DNA from: Criblamydia sequanensis CRIB-18
GTDB taxonomy: Bacteria > Chlamydiota > Chlamydiia > Chlamydiales > Criblamydiaceae
DNA length: 64,000 bases
Assembly: GCF_000750955.1 (NCBI RefSeq)
Contig: NZ_CCEJ010000010.1
Location: 1 to 64,000, forward strand
Direction: 5' to 3'
The notes under the pieces: model-generated
What the model saw: the letters and a program-made list of their open reading frames with translations, nothing else
Database searches by the model: none
What the model was told of the DNA's origin: nothing
Position numbers and translations under genes: made by a program
Part shown: positions 41,142 to 46,732 of the stretch, piece after piece
How the letters are laid out: every line of letters starts with the position of its first letter
How positions within the stretch are numbered: the stretch's first letter is position 1

Positions 41142-41933
41142 TTACGAATAATAGTAATCGATTTCCTCATTTTTCTTAGGACCGATAACCCTCCAGCTTA
41201 GACGCAGACTATGATTATCAAAGTGAATTTGACCAAAATAAATATCTCCTCCGCAGAGATGAGAATCGACAGACGATAGAGAGTTCCGCCCAATTGGGGC
41301 TAGATGAAAAAGAAATACAGGATGGTCAGGCCCCCTTCTTAAATGCTCTAAGGAAATCACGTTGGCTTGGCGATCTAAGGTCCATCTAAACACGTTGCTA
41401 AAACTGACTTCTCCTCCGAGCTTCCCTTGCCAAATCCCCTTTTCATTAAAAATGAGTGCATTCGTACCCTCCTTTGAAACCAATACTTCTCCTTCCCCTT
41501 TGCCGTTCCATCCTTTTTCTTCCTTTGAGTTTGTCTTTGCATGAAACCTTAGCTGATTAATCTCAATAAGTCTCTGCCAAAAAGCTTGTAAGGTTTGAGC
41601 TTTAGTTTTGAAAGAGGTGGTTTCTTTGGGGTCTTCTTTTACGACATAGTAATCTTTTTTTATATGATTAGGAAGCAAGGTATATGCTTTTTTAAGAAGC
41701 TGCTCTAATTCATTTAATAAGGGATAAGCAGGATTAAACTGGTACAGCCTCGTTTTTCCTTCATAATAGCTTGTGATAAGGCCTCCTTTTTCCAAGCGAT
41801 TTAAAGCTTTTTGAAGGGGTGTGAGCGAGGTATCAAGAGATCGATGCAATTGAGTTCCATAGCATTTGCCATTGACAAACAAGAAGATAAGAATTTTCTG
41901 CACATTTTTATTTCCGCATAGAGCTTCTAGCAT
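41142..41933 (-). CDS. Winged-helix regulator with C-terminal DUF6314-like domain, divergent from the biotin operon
   Basis: 263 residues from ATG 41933; a GTG at 41990 would add 19 residues but runs through a repeated 22-bp motif, and the helical domain begins with MLEALCGNKNVQKILIFLF. Residues about 1-80 are an ArsR/PadR-like winged helix: YGTQLHRSLDTSLTPLQKALNRLEKGG. From about 110 a beta-rich domain with WNGKGEGE, WQGKLGGEV and LSWRVIGPKK resembles DUF6314, a small-molecule-binding-type barrel. It faces bioB across 202 bp, so it is a candidate biotin-operon regulator. Ligand unknown. Confidence 0.72.
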   Translation of the reverse strand: MLEALCGNKNVQKILIFLFVNGKCYGTQLHRSLDTSLTPLQKALNRLEKGGLITSYYEGKTRLYQFNPAYPLLNELEQLLKKAYTLLPNHIKKDYYVVKEDPKETTSFKTKAQTLQAFWQRLIEINQLRFHAKTNSKEEKGWNGKGEGEVLVSKEGTNALIFNEKGIWQGKLGGEVSFSNVFRWTLDRQANVISLEHLRRGPDHPVFLFHLAPIGRNSLSSVDSHLCGGDIYFGQIHFDNHSLRLSWRVIGPKKNEEIDYYYS

Positions 41934-41964
41934 AAAAAAAATCAAACCTCGATCTAAATCTTTT

Positions 41965-41986
41965 AAACTATTTTTTGGGTTCAAAC
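41965..41986. promoter_or_regulatory. 22-bp direct repeat copy 1, candidate operator
   Basis: AAACTATTTTTTGGGTTCAAAC differs from the copy at 42031 at three positions. It lies 32 bp before the preferred start of the winged-helix gene. Two near-identical sites 66 bp apart in a divergent gap suggest cooperative binding of a regulator. Confidence 0.45.
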
Positions 41987-42030
41987 ACACTACGTATTCC
42001 CTATTTTTTAAACTTTTTTATATTTTTTAT

Positions 42031-42052
42031 AAACTACTTTTTAGTTTCAAAC
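42031..42052. promoter_or_regulatory. 22-bp direct repeat copy 2, candidate operator before bioB
   Basis: AAACTACTTTTTAGTTTCAAAC also contains a small dyad, AAACTA-CTTTT-TAGTTT. It ends 83 bp upstream of the bioB ATG and is a likely place for control of the bio operon. Confidence 0.45.
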
Positions 42053-42135
42053 GACCTTAAATGAAGGATGTTTTCATTGAAATATCAAAAAAATCGTCCT
42101 AAAATTCCTTTATCAGTAATAAAAATGGTGATTTT

Positions 42136-43107
42136 ATGTCGATCAGACATGATTGGACACTTGAAGAGCTTCAAGTTTTGTATGATTTACCTTTCATTGA
42201 ACTTGTTTCAAAAGCCAATCAAATTCATAGCCGATTTCATGAGCTTTCAGAAATTCAGGTCTGCAGTTTGATTTCCATTAAAACAGGAGGTTGCCAAGAA
42301 GACTGCAAATACTGCGCCCAATCCTCACGTTATCAAACCTCTATTAAAGCTCAGCCGATGATGACTTTTGAAGCAGTGCTAAGAGATGCCAAAAGTGCCA
42401 TAAAACAAGGAGCTACGAGGGTTTGTTTGGGGGCCGCTTGGCGAGAAGTGCGTGAGGGCAAGCCTTTTGAAGAAATACTTAAAATAATTGAAGCCATTAC
42501 AAGCTTAGGTGTAGAAGTTTGCTGTACTTTAGGCATGCTCAACGCATCTCAAGCAAAGAGGCTAAAAGAAGCTGGTCTCTATGCTTACAACCACAATTTA
42601 GATACTTCGGAAAAATTCTACAAAACCATCATAACGACAAGAACCTATCAAGACCGTTTGGACACACTTAGTCATTTAGAAAATTCGAAACTAAGTATTT
42701 GCTGCGGAGGTATCTTAGGGATGGGAGAAGACTATATGGACCGGCTAGAACTTCTGCTTCTCTTGGGAACAAGAAACCCGCATCCTGAATCAGTCCCCAT
42801 CAATAGACTAAGCCAAATTCCAGGTACCCCTCTAGAAGGTCAATCAAAAGTTTCAGTATGGGAACTGATACGAATCGTTGCCATAGCTCGGATAGTCCTG
42901 CCTAAAAGTATGATCCGGTTAGCTTGCGGAAGAATCGGGATGTCTTATGAAGAACAAGCCTTATGTTTCCTATCGGGAGCAAATTCTATATTTGCCGGCG
43001 AGAAACTTTTAACCGTTGCAAATACTCCTATCGACAAAGATGAAGAGATGTTTCAACTTCTTGGTCTTAAGAAAAAAACAGCGTTTAAAAAGGCTTCAAA
43101 ATCATGA
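42136..43107 (+). CDS. bioB: Biotin synthase
   Basis: 323 residues. A radical-SAM enzyme with Cys53, Cys57 and Cys60 in GGCQEDCKYC binding the 4Fe-4S cluster. Later conserved residues include YNHNLDTSEKFY at about 154-165, CCGGILGMGE near 190 and RLACGR near 258 (the Arg and Cys around the 2Fe-2S site). It inserts sulfur into dethiobiotin. First gene of a five-gene run; its TGA overlaps the bioF ATG. Confidence 0.96.
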   Translation: MSIRHDWTLEELQVLYDLPFIELVSKANQIHSRFHELSEIQVCSLISIKTGGCQEDCKYCAQSSRYQTSIKAQPMMTFEAVLRDAKSAIKQGATRVCLGAAWREVREGKPFEEILKIIEAITSLGVEVCCTLGMLNASQAKRLKEAGLYAYNHNLDTSEKFYKTIITTRTYQDRLDTLSHLENSKLSICCGGILGMGEDYMDRLELLLLLGTRNPHPESVPINRLSQIPGTPLEGQSKVSVWELIRIVAIARIVLPKSMIRLACGRIGMSYEEQALCFLSGANSIFAGEKLLTVANTPIDKDEEMFQLLGLKKKTAFKKASKS

Positions 43108-44225
43108 TCTCTCACTTAGAAAATAAATTATTGATACGAAGAAAGTTTGGTCATTTAAGACAATTGAAGATTAACGAAAACTTAATTGATTTTTCATCCA
43201 ATGATTATTTAGGTCTTGCAAGATCTGCAGACCTCGCAAAAGCATTTCTTCAAGAATGGGAAAATCACTTGAACCCTTTTATTGGATCAACAGGGTCCCG
43301 CTTACTTACGGGTAATTCAAATTACGCTCAAGATTTAGAGGAGAGAATTTCAAAATTCCATGGCTTTGACGCGGGCCTTCTTTTCAATACCGGCTACATG
43401 GCAAATCTAGGCTTACTTTCTGCTATTGGAAACGAGGAAAGTGTGTTTTTTTACGACTTAGGTGTGCACGCTTCCACCCATGATGGCATTCTCTTAAGTA
43501 AAGCTAAAGCTGTTCCCTTCAAACATAACGATCTTCAACATCTAGAAGAGAGGCTTAAAAAAAGTTATCTTTCCAAAAATCGCTTTATTTGCATCGAATC
43601 CATTTACTCAACAGACGGTTCCATGGCGCCAGTGCTTGAAATTTGCAAGCTTTCTCAAAAATATAATGCTCATATGATTGTTGATGAAGCTCATTCGGCG
43701 GGCATCTATGGACCTCAAGGAAGAGGCTTAATTTCAGAATACGGTCTTACCGATAAAGTCTTTGCTATAATAGTCACTTTTGGTAAAGCGCTAGGAACTT
43801 TTGGCGCCATTGTGCTTGGCAGTTCCCTTTTAAAAGAAACTCTTATAAATTTTGCTAAATCTTTTATCTTTACAACAGCCCTCCCTTTTCAAGCGCTGGC
43901 TTCTATCAAATGCTGCTACGACTTATTTCCGAAATTAGAAAAAGAAAGACAAAACCTTAAAAATTTAATCAACCGTTTTAGAAATAGTTTACCTAGTTCT
44001 TCAATCACCCCTATTCAACCAATACTTATTTCCGGAAATGAACAAGCTAACTTAGCAGCTCAACATTTACAGGATTTAGGCTTTGATGTAAGAGCGCTTT
44101 TGAGTCCTACAGTGAAACGTGGGAATGAAGTTCTTCGTATTTGCTTGCATAGTTTCAATACTGAGCATGAGTTGTCTCTTTTACTGAACCGCATTCCAGT
44201 TATAAGGGAGCCTCTTTATGCATAA
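43104..44225 (+). CDS. bioF: 8-amino-7-oxononanoate synthase
   Basis: 373 residues, PLP fold type I. Asp194 in VDEAHSAG and the Schiff-base Lys228 in TFGKALG are present, as are GSTGSRLLTGN and NTGYMANLG. It condenses pimeloyl-ACP or -CoA with alanine. ATGA overlap with bioB, 8-bp overlap with bioD. At 373 residues it is slightly short but complete. Confidence 0.95.
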   Translation: MISHLENKLLIRRKFGHLRQLKINENLIDFSSNDYLGLARSADLAKAFLQEWENHLNPFIGSTGSRLLTGNSNYAQDLEERISKFHGFDAGLLFNTGYMANLGLLSAIGNEESVFFYDLGVHASTHDGILLSKAKAVPFKHNDLQHLEERLKKSYLSKNRFICIESIYSTDGSMAPVLEICKLSQKYNAHMIVDEAHSAGIYGPQGRGLISEYGLTDKVFAIIVTFGKALGTFGAIVLGSSLLKETLINFAKSFIFTTALPFQALASIKCCYDLFPKLEKERQNLKNLINRFRNSLPSSSITPIQPILISGNEQANLAAQHLQDLGFDVRALLSPTVKRGNEVLRICLHSFNTEHELSLLLNRIPVIREPLYA

Positions 44226-44847
44226 TATTATGGTGTCAGGAATAGGAACAGGGGTTGGTAAAACGATTGTAAGCACTATTCTTACAATTCTTTTTGATGG
44301 AGATTATTGGAAACCGATTCAATGCGGAAATAAAGAAAATTCAGATACAGTACAGGTAAAAAAGTGGCTAAACCCCTCTAGACATGTTATTCATCCTCCC
44401 GCTTATTCTTTTAAGGCTCCCTTATCCCCTCATCATGCCGCACGTTTAGAGAAAATCTCTATCAATCTAAAAAAGGTTTTTCCTCCCACAACAGATCGTT
44501 CCTTGATCATTGAAGGTGTCGGCGGGATTTTGGTTCCAGTAACTACTCAATGTGTAAGCTTGGAATTATTCAAATCATGGAATTGCAAGTGGATTCTTGT
44601 TTCAAATCATTACTTGGGGAGTATAAATCATACCTTGCTCACCCTTGAAGTTTTAAAACAACACCAAATTCCACTTCTTGGAATCATTTTTAATGGACCC
44701 CCTAATCCTGATAGTGAAAGTGCCGTCTTAGCCATCTCAAAAGTTCCTTTTTTAGGAAGATTGCTAAAAGAACCTTATGTAACAAAAACAACCCTTCAAA
44801 AGTATGTAAAACAATGGCAACCACATTTTTCGAAAATACTTCTTTAG
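44218..44847 (+). CDS. bioD: Dethiobiotin synthetase
   Basis: 209 residues. P-loop GIGTGVGKTIVS at about 7-18, KPIQCG near 39, and the switch-like EGVGGILVPV near 99. It carboxylates 7,8-diaminopelargonate with ATP. Overlaps bioF and bioA at both ends, so the operon is tightly packed. Confidence 0.93.
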   Translation: MHNIMVSGIGTGVGKTIVSTILTILFDGDYWKPIQCGNKENSDTVQVKKWLNPSRHVIHPPAYSFKAPLSPHHAARLEKISINLKKVFPPTTDRSLIIEGVGGILVPVTTQCVSLELFKSWNCKWILVSNHYLGSINHTLLTLEVLKQHQIPLLGIIFNGPPNPDSESAVLAISKVPFLGRLLKEPYVTKTTLQKYVKQWQPHFSKILL

Positions 44848-46109
44848 TTGATAAAGATAGAGCTTGCATTTGGCACCCTTTTACCCAAATGCAAACCGCA
44901 AAACCTCCTATTCCGATTGTCCGTGCAAAAGGAGTCTATCTCTATGACGCTTCCGGGAATTGCTATTTGGATGCCATTTCCTCTTGGTGGGTGAACCTCC
45001 ATGGGCATACTCATCCCTATATTGCTCAAAAAATCAAATCTCAATCGGAAATATTAGAGCATGTTATTTTTGCTGACTTCACCCATGCGCCAGCAATTGA
45101 TTTAGCATCCAGGCTGATTTCTCTTCTACCGGGTAAAATGTCTAAAGTTTTCTACTCCGATAATGGTTCCACTTCAGTTGAAGCGGCTTTAAAAATAGCG
45201 ATACAGTTTTGGCATAACCAAAATGTCAATAAAAAAAAGATTATCTGTTTTAAAAATAGTTATCATGGCGACACTTTTGGGGCTATGTCAGCATCCGGAA
45301 AAAATCCGTTTAATAGACCCTTCTGGACGCACCTTTTTGAAGTAACAGCCATTGATCCACCCTTAAAAGGTCAAGAAAAAACTTCCCTGCAGCAACTTGA
45401 ATCTCTTTTGGAGTTAGAGGACACGGCTTGCTTTATTTTTGAACCACTTGTTTTAGGTTCTGGGGGGATGATTATTTATCCCCCAAATGGTTTGGACCTT
45501 TTAATTCAAAGCTGCAAGAAGCATCAAGTTTTAACCATAGCAGATGAAGTCATGACAGGATTTGGCCGAACAGGAACCCTCTTTGCATGCGATCAACTTC
45601 AGGAAGAACCCGATATTATCTGCTTATCCAAAGGTCTAACAGGCGGATTTTTACCTCTTGGGGCAACGATTTGTACGGAAAATATTTTTAACGCATTTTT
45701 AGGAAATCATTTGCATCAAGCGTTCCTACATGGCCATTCGTATACCGCAAATCCCCTTGCTTGCAGCAGCGCTCTTGCAAGCCTTGATCTTTTATTAGAA
45801 GATAAATGCACGCATCAAAGAAAACTGATTGAAAATTCGCATCATTCTTTTTGTCAAAAATGGAAATTCCACCCTAAACTAAAAAGATGTGAAGTACAAG
45901 GCACGATTTTAGTTTTAGAATATCATACAAATACACCTTCTTATTTTGATTCTCTTCGCGATCAACTGTACGGCTTTTTTTTAGAAAAAAAAATTTTACT
46001 TCGTCCTTTAGGGAACGTTCTCTATCTTTTGCCTCCCTACTGTATTCAAGAGGAAGAACTTCAATTTATCTACGATCAAATTATTCTTACTTTGGAAGGC
46101 GGCTTATGA
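44814..46109 (+). CDS. bioA: Adenosylmethionine-8-amino-7-oxononanoate aminotransferase
   Basis: 431 residues. HPFTQM at 21-26 is the KAPA/SAM pocket signature; SSWWVNLHGH, Asp244 (ADEVMTGFGRTG) and the Schiff-base Lys273 (LSKGLTGGFLPLG) follow. It converts KAPA to DAPA using SAM as amino donor. The ATG at 44814 lies 34 bp inside bioD; a TTG near 44848 is an alternative that would lose a few residues. Confidence 0.95.
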   Translation: MATTFFENTSLVDKDRACIWHPFTQMQTAKPPIPIVRAKGVYLYDASGNCYLDAISSWWVNLHGHTHPYIAQKIKSQSEILEHVIFADFTHAPAIDLASRLISLLPGKMSKVFYSDNGSTSVEAALKIAIQFWHNQNVNKKKIICFKNSYHGDTFGAMSASGKNPFNRPFWTHLFEVTAIDPPLKGQEKTSLQQLESLLELEDTACFIFEPLVLGSGGMIIYPPNGLDLLIQSCKKHQVLTIADEVMTGFGRTGTLFACDQLQEEPDIICLSKGLTGGFLPLGATICTENIFNAFLGNHLHQAFLHGHSYTANPLACSSALASLDLLLEDKCTHQRKLIENSHHSFCQKWKFHPKLKRCEVQGTILVLEYHTNTPSYFDSLRDQLYGFFLEKKILLRPLGNVLYLLPPYCIQEEELQFIYDQIILTLEGGL

Positions 46110-46732
46110 CTTCATTTATTTCTTTTTCAAAACAAATCAAAGAAATTCTAAGCACTATCGTTTTGTCTGAAAAATTACATGCCAGATGGCTTAATACTCT
46201 TTCATTTCTTGAAAATTGCGGCGCAAGACAAATTGCTGCTTGTGAGCATCCCACCTTAGTTAAAGAAGAAATGCTAAAACACGCTGCTGAAGAATTTCGA
46301 CATGCCCACTATCTAAAACGTCAAATTGGAAGAGTATCTTCTGAATCAATAGAAACCTATTCCCGCTCTAATATACTTGGGGAAACATCCACTCTTCATT
46401 ATTTAGGGGCCTTGAATATAAAAACTTCTCGCTACCTTAAATCTTTAGGGTTATCGCATAACTTAATCAAAGAAGGTGCCTATTTACTTGTCACCTATGC
46501 CATAGAGTTGCGAGCCGAAGAATTATACCCTCTCTACGAAGAAATACTACGGAAAGCAAGCTCAAGGGTCACTGTTAAATCTATTTTATTGGAGGAAAAA
46601 GAACATCTTCTAGAGATGAAAGAAGGGCTTGAAAAATTCCCTTCAGGGCTTCACTATGCGGAGAAAATCCTTTCTATAGAAAGCAAGCTTTGTAAATCTT
46701 GGTTAGATGGCTTATCAAAGAGTATAGAATGA
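46106..46732 (+). CDS. Ferritin-like diiron protein, last gene of the biotin operon
   Basis: 208 residues, nearly all helical. Candidate metal ligands follow the ferritin/rubrerythrin order: E36, E63xxH66 (EEFRH), E134 or E138, then E164xxH167 (EEKEH). Spacing between the paired ligands is about 27-30 residues in each half, as in ferritin-like oxygenases. The ATG overlaps the bioA stop (ATGA), so it is translated with the bio enzymes. bioC, bioH, bioW, bioI and bioZ are not in the window, so a role in making the pimeloyl precursor is tempting but unproven. It is not CADD/TenA-like in motif order as far as I can see. Confidence 0.8.
   Translation: MTSFISFSKQIKEILSTIVLSEKLHARWLNTLSFLENCGARQIAACEHPTLVKEEMLKHAAEEFRHAHYLKRQIGRVSSESIETYSRSNILGETSTLHYLGALNIKTSRYLKSLGLSHNLIKEGAYLLVTYAIELRAEELYPLYEEILRKASSRVTVKSILLEEKEHLLEMKEGLEKFPSGLHYAEKILSIESKLCKSWLDGLSKSIE

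What the first reader, a model, noticed from the sequence alone, without database searches (positions are those of the whole stretch)
46106..46732. Ferritin-like diiron protein as the fifth gene of a bioBFDA operon
It is translationally coupled to bioA and has the full E, ExxH, E, ExxH ligand order. Genes for pimeloyl synthesis (bioC/bioH, bioW, bioI, bioZ) are not in the window. A diiron oxygenase could cleave or oxidise a fatty-acyl-ACP to supply the pimeloyl chain, as the P450 BioI does. This would be a new entry route to biotin.
Basis: partly seen in the sequence, partly recalled or inferred. Interest (0 to 1): 0.72.

Follow-up and report, generated by a model that had tools for sequence, protein, structure and literature searches.

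The report
BioE biotin oxygenase in environmental chlamydia

Summary
ORF 46106-46732 overlaps bioA by ATGA, closes a bioB-F-D-A operon and has ligands E36, E63xxH66, E134, E164xxH167. All six ligands and 10 of 11 published channel residues match; the published carrier-face residues mostly do not, so ACP versus CoA preference is open. bioE follows bioA in 26 of 26 named loci; 69 of 85 bioB-bearing Chlamydiota genomes have it, and none with bioE has a strong BioC. The window's genome (99.7% complete) has no BioC, BioH or BioW over cut-off and no bio-linked P450 or KAS III.

New side result: the divergent gene upstream of bioB (41142-41990, minus) is an ArsR-type winged helix fused to a calycin-like barrel (DUF6314). 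A palindrome, ATAAACTA-N5-TAGTTTAT (42029-42049), lies between it and bioB. In chlamydiae without bio genes, the same gene and palindrome often sit beside bioY. This predicts an undescribed biotin regulator in chlamydiae outside Chlamydiaceae.

The parts
46106..46732 (+). bioE: ferritin-like diiron oxygenase, 208 aa; ligands E36, E63, H66, E134, E164, H167
   Evidence: published BioE, PMC12915131
42136..43107 (+). bioB, biotin synthase
   Evidence: TIGR00433 368 bits, cut-off 225
43104..44225 (+). bioF, 8-amino-7-oxononanoate synthase
   Evidence: best NCBIfam match TIGR00858, 321 bits, below its cut-off of 426; position in operon
44218..44847 (+). bioD, dethiobiotin synthase
   Evidence: TIGR00347 111 bits, cut-off 83
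44814..46109 (+). bioA, adenosylmethionine-8-amino-7-oxononanoate transaminase
   Evidence: TIGR00508 529 bits, cut-off 405
41142..41990 (-). divergent candidate regulator: ArsR-type winged helix plus DUF6314 calycin-like barrel; the conserved part begins at the ATG at 41933
42029..42049 (.). predicted operator ATAAACTACTTTTTAGTTTCA, consensus ATAAACTA-N5-TAGTTTAT
42077..42105 (+). sigma-70-like promoter match upstream of bioB, just downstream of the operator (number of matches in the region no higher than in shuffles)

Best explanation
The gene encodes BioE. It is a ferritin-like non-heme diiron oxygenase that takes a long-chain acyl thioester from the type II fatty-acid synthase, cleaves the C7-C8 bond using O2 and reductant, and leaves a pimeloyl thioester (probably pimeloyl-ACP). 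BioF, BioA, BioD and BioB, encoded just upstream in the same operon, then make biotin. Shown here: the gene, the operon, the ligand set, the channel residues, the predicted fold, the conserved linkage, and the lack of other recognisable pimeloyl routes in the genome. Shown in the literature for orthologues: the reaction, the iron content and the bypass of BioC-BioH. Inferred: that this particular protein does the same, which carrier it prefers, and its electron donor.
For: Six of six published iron ligands and 10 of 11 published channel residues at aligned positions (published list). Probable Chlamydia bioE genes carry 20-22 of 23 published C. psittaci letters at the published numbering, and the window protein aligns to them over its full length at 47-50% identity. 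bioE directly follows bioA in 26 of 26 named loci. 69 of 85 bioB genomes have bioE; strong BioC in 7 genomes, never with bioE. No BioC, BioH or BioW over cut-off in the own genome. Model pLDDT 94.3 with best structural alignment to an aldehyde-deformylating oxygenase, Z 17.8. Enzymology of orthologues.
Against: No activity was measured for this protein. Of six published carrier-face residues only F34 is kept, K46 is the conservative R41, and Q42, L97, H98 and G101 differ, although each was reported essential in the C. psittaci enzyme. bioF is below its curated cut-off. BioY is present, so biotin uptake is also possible.
Confidence: 0.94

Rival explanations
1. The diiron protein has another task in the operon (for example a CADD-like self-sacrificing oxygenase, or an accessory to BioB), and pimeloyl is scavenged or made elsewhere.
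For: CADD of Chlamydia has a related fold (Z 15.4), and BioY is present in the genome.
Against: Only 10% identity to CADD in the structural alignment, whereas the full published BioE ligand and channel set is kept. The orthologous C. psittaci protein makes pimeloyl-ACP. bioE and BioC exclude each other.
Confidence: 0.03
2. A weak BioC/BioH-like pair, or FabH acting like BioZ, supplies pimeloyl in this genome, and the diiron gene is a passenger.
For: Distant BioC-like (74.8 bits) and BioH-like (79.9 bits) proteins exist. A BioZ-like role for FabH and a BioC-like role for UbiE were suggested for Chlamydia in 2012 (PMC3459881).
Against: Both scores are far below the cut-offs of 185 and 207 bits. 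The best BioC-like protein fits trans-aconitate methyltransferase models better. FabH sits in a fab cluster beside fabD. A passenger would not stay fixed after bioA in 26 of 26 loci.
Confidence: 0.02
3. The genome's single P450 works like BioI and supplies pimeloyl.
For: A 481-aa P450 lies at C7:88636-89325 next to a FadL/OmpP1-like gene.
Against: It is not near bio genes. Its best solved relatives are P450 3A4 and BM3-type at E about 1e-6, and BioI is not among the 60 shown.
Confidence: 0.01

Closest known systems
BioE of Chlamydia psittaci and Elizabethkingia meningoseptica (PMC12915131)
   Same: Six iron ligands, 10 of 11 channel residues, place after the bio genes, chlamydial host, no BioC/BioH route found
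   Different: Four of six carrier-face residues are replaced, so the carrier is uncertain; bioE overlaps bioA by ATGA, whereas the probable Chlamydia loci leave about 35-70 bases between the tblastn matches; a DUF6314 regulator gene lies beside the operon, which those loci lack
Cytochrome P450 BioI (Bacillus subtilis)
   Same: Works alike: oxidative cleavage of acyl-ACP to pimeloyl-ACP
   Different: Unrelated heme enzyme; not a member
Aldehyde-deformylating oxygenase (cADO)
   Same: Best structural alignment (Z 17.8); long-chain fatty substrate in a diiron four-helix core
   Different: 16% identity; different reaction and no biotin linkage
CADD (CT610), chlamydial diiron oxygenase for p-aminobenzoate
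   Same: Related fold (Z 15.4) and found in the same phylum
   Different: 10% identity; different role
For the neighbour gene: biotin regulators BirA, BioR, BioQ and BioL
   Same: Same presumed job: control of biotin genes
   Different: Different architecture (ArsR-type winged helix plus DUF6314 barrel) and, from general knowledge, a different operator from those reported for BirA, BioR and BioQ

Membership tests
BioE | Six diiron ligands (E41, E68, H71, E140, E170, H173 in C. psittaci) | tested here: met
   E36, E63, H66, E134, E164, H167, invariant in 46 homologues
BioE | Hydrophobic acyl channel residues (11 published) | tested here: met
   10 of 11 identical; L205 is W199, as in 30 of 46 homologues
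BioE | Carrier-face residues (F39, K46, K47, K102, Y103, D106), held to set ACP preference | tested here: inconclusive
   F34 kept, R41 conservative, four replaced. These columns vary across the family, and D106 differs in all nine Chlamydia-type genes compared
BioE | Gene in a biotin cluster | tested here: met
   Directly after bioA in 26 of 26 named loci
BioE | Ferritin-like helical fold | tested here: met
   Seven helices, pLDDT 94.3; cADO, MiaE and CADD top the structural alignments, while Foldseek alone gave none below E 0.001
BioE | Cleavage of acyl-ACP or acyl-CoA to pimeloyl and rescue of E. coli bioC/bioH mutants | not testable with these tools
   Needs an experiment; shown for C. psittaci and Elizabethkingia
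BioE-BioL module | Linked MocR-type repressor BioL | tested here: not met
   The genes on either side are a winged-helix/DUF6314 gene and an ornithine-cyclodeaminase-like ORF; a BioL elsewhere in the genome was not searched for. Chlamydia lack BioL too
BioI (P450) | Cytochrome P450 fold with heme cysteine | tested here: not met
   All-helical ferritin-like protein; no P450 match in Pfam
CADD | Sequence and site of the p-aminobenzoate-forming diiron protein | tested here: inconclusive
   Same broad fold (Z 15.4) but 10% identity, and no sequence match to CADD in the PDB search

The most novel reading that the evidence does not exclude
The gene divergent from bioB (41142-41990, minus) is an undescribed biotin regulator of chlamydiae outside Chlamydiaceae. 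An ArsR-type winged helix is fused to a calycin-like beta-barrel that senses biotin or a pathway acyl intermediate and binds ATAAACTA-N5-TAGTTTAT, controlling bioBFDAE where synthesis exists and bioY (with a BPL_N gene) where it does not. It would fill the place that BioL holds in Elizabethkingia.
Probability: 0.6. Interest if true: 0.6.

Novelty: new member of a known kind. Interest (0 to 1): 0.45.

Why it matters
It answers, for environmental chlamydiae, how pimeloyl is probably made without BioC/BioH, a gap noted for Chlamydia in 2012 (PMC3459881). It extends BioE from Chlamydiaceae to much of the phylum Chlamydiota and shows that BioE and BioC occur as alternatives within one phylum. The neighbouring regulator, if confirmed, would be a new way of sensing biotin status, with a specific operator and two target sets that can be tested directly.

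Tried and rejected
A PF13649 scan of the own genome was uninformative, as many methyltransferases match. Pfam and NCBIfam gave no BioE model: only sub-threshold Rubrerythrin and COQ7 hits, none in NCBIfam. The PDB sequence search found no credible relative. Plasmid records hold no relative. The founding PNAS paper is not held. I considered a P450 BioI, a FabH/BioZ and a weak BioC/BioH pair, and rejected them. I first took the DUF6314 gene as specific to bio clusters; that was wrong, since 32 matches are in genomes without bioB, and in 9 of 17 such loci fetched it sits beside bioY. No N5 palindrome was found near the window genome's own bioY. I could not obtain a named C. psittaci or Elizabethkingia BioE sequence and used the published residue numbers instead.

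Full report
WHAT IS THERE. The window is C10:1-64000 of a 2.97-Mb, 99.7% complete genome whose nearest relatives by BioE are environmental chlamydiae. Genes bioB, bioF, bioD and bioA run from 42136 to 46109, and the reported ORF starts in the ATGA that ends bioA. The protein of 208 aa carries E36, E63-x2-H66, E134 and E164-x2-H167, all invariant in 46 aligned homologues.

WHAT IT IS. A full-text search found the answer: BioE, a ferritin-like diiron oxygenase (PMC12915131, December 2025, which credits the discovery to a PNAS 2025 paper that I could not read). That paper reports that C. psittaci BioE holds about two irons, needs O2 and reductant, converts C14-C18-ACP to pimeloyl-ACP with undecanoic acid as the other product from C18-ACP, and bypasses BioC-BioH in E. 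coli; alanine at any of its six ligands abolishes function.

LINK TO THE PUBLISHED ENZYME. Nine bioE genes there match 20-22 of 23 at the published numbering, and D106 differs in all nine; in others the numbering is shifted by length differences near the start. The window protein aligns to these genes over its full length at 47-50% identity, with 6 of 6 ligands and 10 of 11 channel residues. The six carrier-face residues are poorly kept, so strict acyl-ACP preference should not be assumed.

COMPARATIVE EVIDENCE. All 26 named loci have bioE directly after bioA, with the other bio genes in order as far as the contig reaches. In 234 Chlamydiota genomes, full-length or nearly full-length bioE occurs in 72 and bioB over cut-off in 85, with 69 in common. 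Strong BioC-like genes (132-173 bits) occur in 7 genomes and never with bioE; BioW was not found in the phylum sample. Most clusters with BioC have a different layout, with a BioG-like hydrolase and a bioF only 31-35% identical to the window's. 'BioG-like' is my reading from position and the HGWGF start; Pfam gave a general hydrolase match for one and none for another. Of the bioB genomes with neither gene by these criteria, several are cut by contig ends and two (L107, L113) carry BioG-like genes. These counts are not corrected for shared ancestry.

STRUCTURE. The AlphaFold2 model (mean pLDDT 94.3) has seven helices. Foldseek alone gave no match below E 0.001. The second aligner gave Z 17.8 (rmsd 2.4, 178 residues, 16% identity) to an aldehyde-deformylating oxygenase, Z 17.2 to MiaE and Z 15.4 to chlamydial CADD. 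For helical proteins a best Z near 14 can be background, so this supports the fold class, not the function.

OTHER ROUTES IN THIS GENOME. BioC-like best 74.8 bits against a cut-off of 185, BioH-like best 79.9 against 207, BioW none. The top BioC-like protein fits trans-aconitate methyltransferase models better. The KAS III proteins are FabH beside fabD and a chalcone-synthase-like protein. One P450 lies far from bio genes. BioY is present, so uptake is also possible.

A REGULATOR NEXT DOOR. The gene divergent from bioB has a winged-helix N-terminus like ArsR-type repressors (Z about 11 to BigR, HlyU and SqrR) and a C-terminal beta-barrel like nitrobindin and CpeS (Z about 11). Pfam calls the latter DUF6314, a name found in no held paper. 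It lies next to bioB in 45 of the 49 bioB genomes that hold a full-length copy; in the other four it is on another contig. It is absent from the fetched loci of family f4 and is not beside bioB in the BioC/BioG-type clusters fetched. Thirty-two further full-length matches are in genomes without bioB. In 9 of 17 such loci fetched it is divergent from bioY, where the next gene is BPL_N-like in the cases scanned, and in three more a bioB or bioE remnant lies beside it.

OPERATOR. Intergenic regions between this gene and bioB share ATAAACTA-N5-TAGTTTAT. Learned on random halves of 26 regions, the same motif and spacing were chosen each time, and the held-out halves scored 32-39 total mismatches against a null minimum of 65. 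As an independent test, 7 of 9 bioY-side intergenic regions have a site with at most 3 mismatches, against 0.06 expected. In the window it occurs once, at 42029-42049. On that count alone it would not be significant (0.75 expected at 3 mismatches), so the case rests on the comparison between genomes. That the site binds this protein, and that the protein responds to biotin or an acyl ligand, is inference.

VERDICT. What remains new is its spread in environmental chlamydiae, its mutual exclusion with BioC in that phylum, and the predicted regulator and operator.

Noticed in passing
window 41142-41990 (-) and 42029-42049; loci L009-L034, L098-L102, L110-L112, L128-L135: ArsR-type winged helix plus DUF6314 barrel gene divergent from bioB (or from bioY in bio-less genomes), with a shared palindrome ATAAACTA-N5-TAGTTTAT between the genes: a predicted biotin regulator of chlamydiae.
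   Followed up: partly
L107, L113, L117, L119, L120, L121: A second type of chlamydial biotin cluster with BioC-like and BioG-like genes (BioG-like only in some) and a divergent bioF; it never co-occurs with bioE in the 234 genomes searched.
   Followed up: partly
L097 3662-4848: A genome of family f4 (probably Chlamydia) keeps bioB and a fragment of bioE but has lost bioF, bioD and bioA: a biotin cluster caught in decay.
   Followed up: no
L091 3910-6694: Two tandem bioA-like genes in one f4 genome.
   Followed up: no
L141 3875-5157, L142 3002-4337, L137 5144-6244: bioB or bioE remnants next to an intact DUF6314 regulator gene, suggesting loss of biotin synthesis with retention of the regulator.
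   Followed up: no
L051 814-3417 (own genome C7 near 88.6-89.3 kb): A 481-aa cytochrome P450 next to a FadL/OmpP1-like gene.
   Followed up: partly
L126 1477-2643 (own genome C1 near 357.6 kb): A chalcone-synthase-like (type III polyketide synthase) protein next to a UbiG-like methyltransferase.
   Followed up: no
L127 737-2058 (own genome C4): bioY followed by a stand-alone BPL_N (biotin-protein ligase N-terminal-like) gene, a pairing also seen beside the regulator in bio-less chlamydiae.
   Followed up: partly
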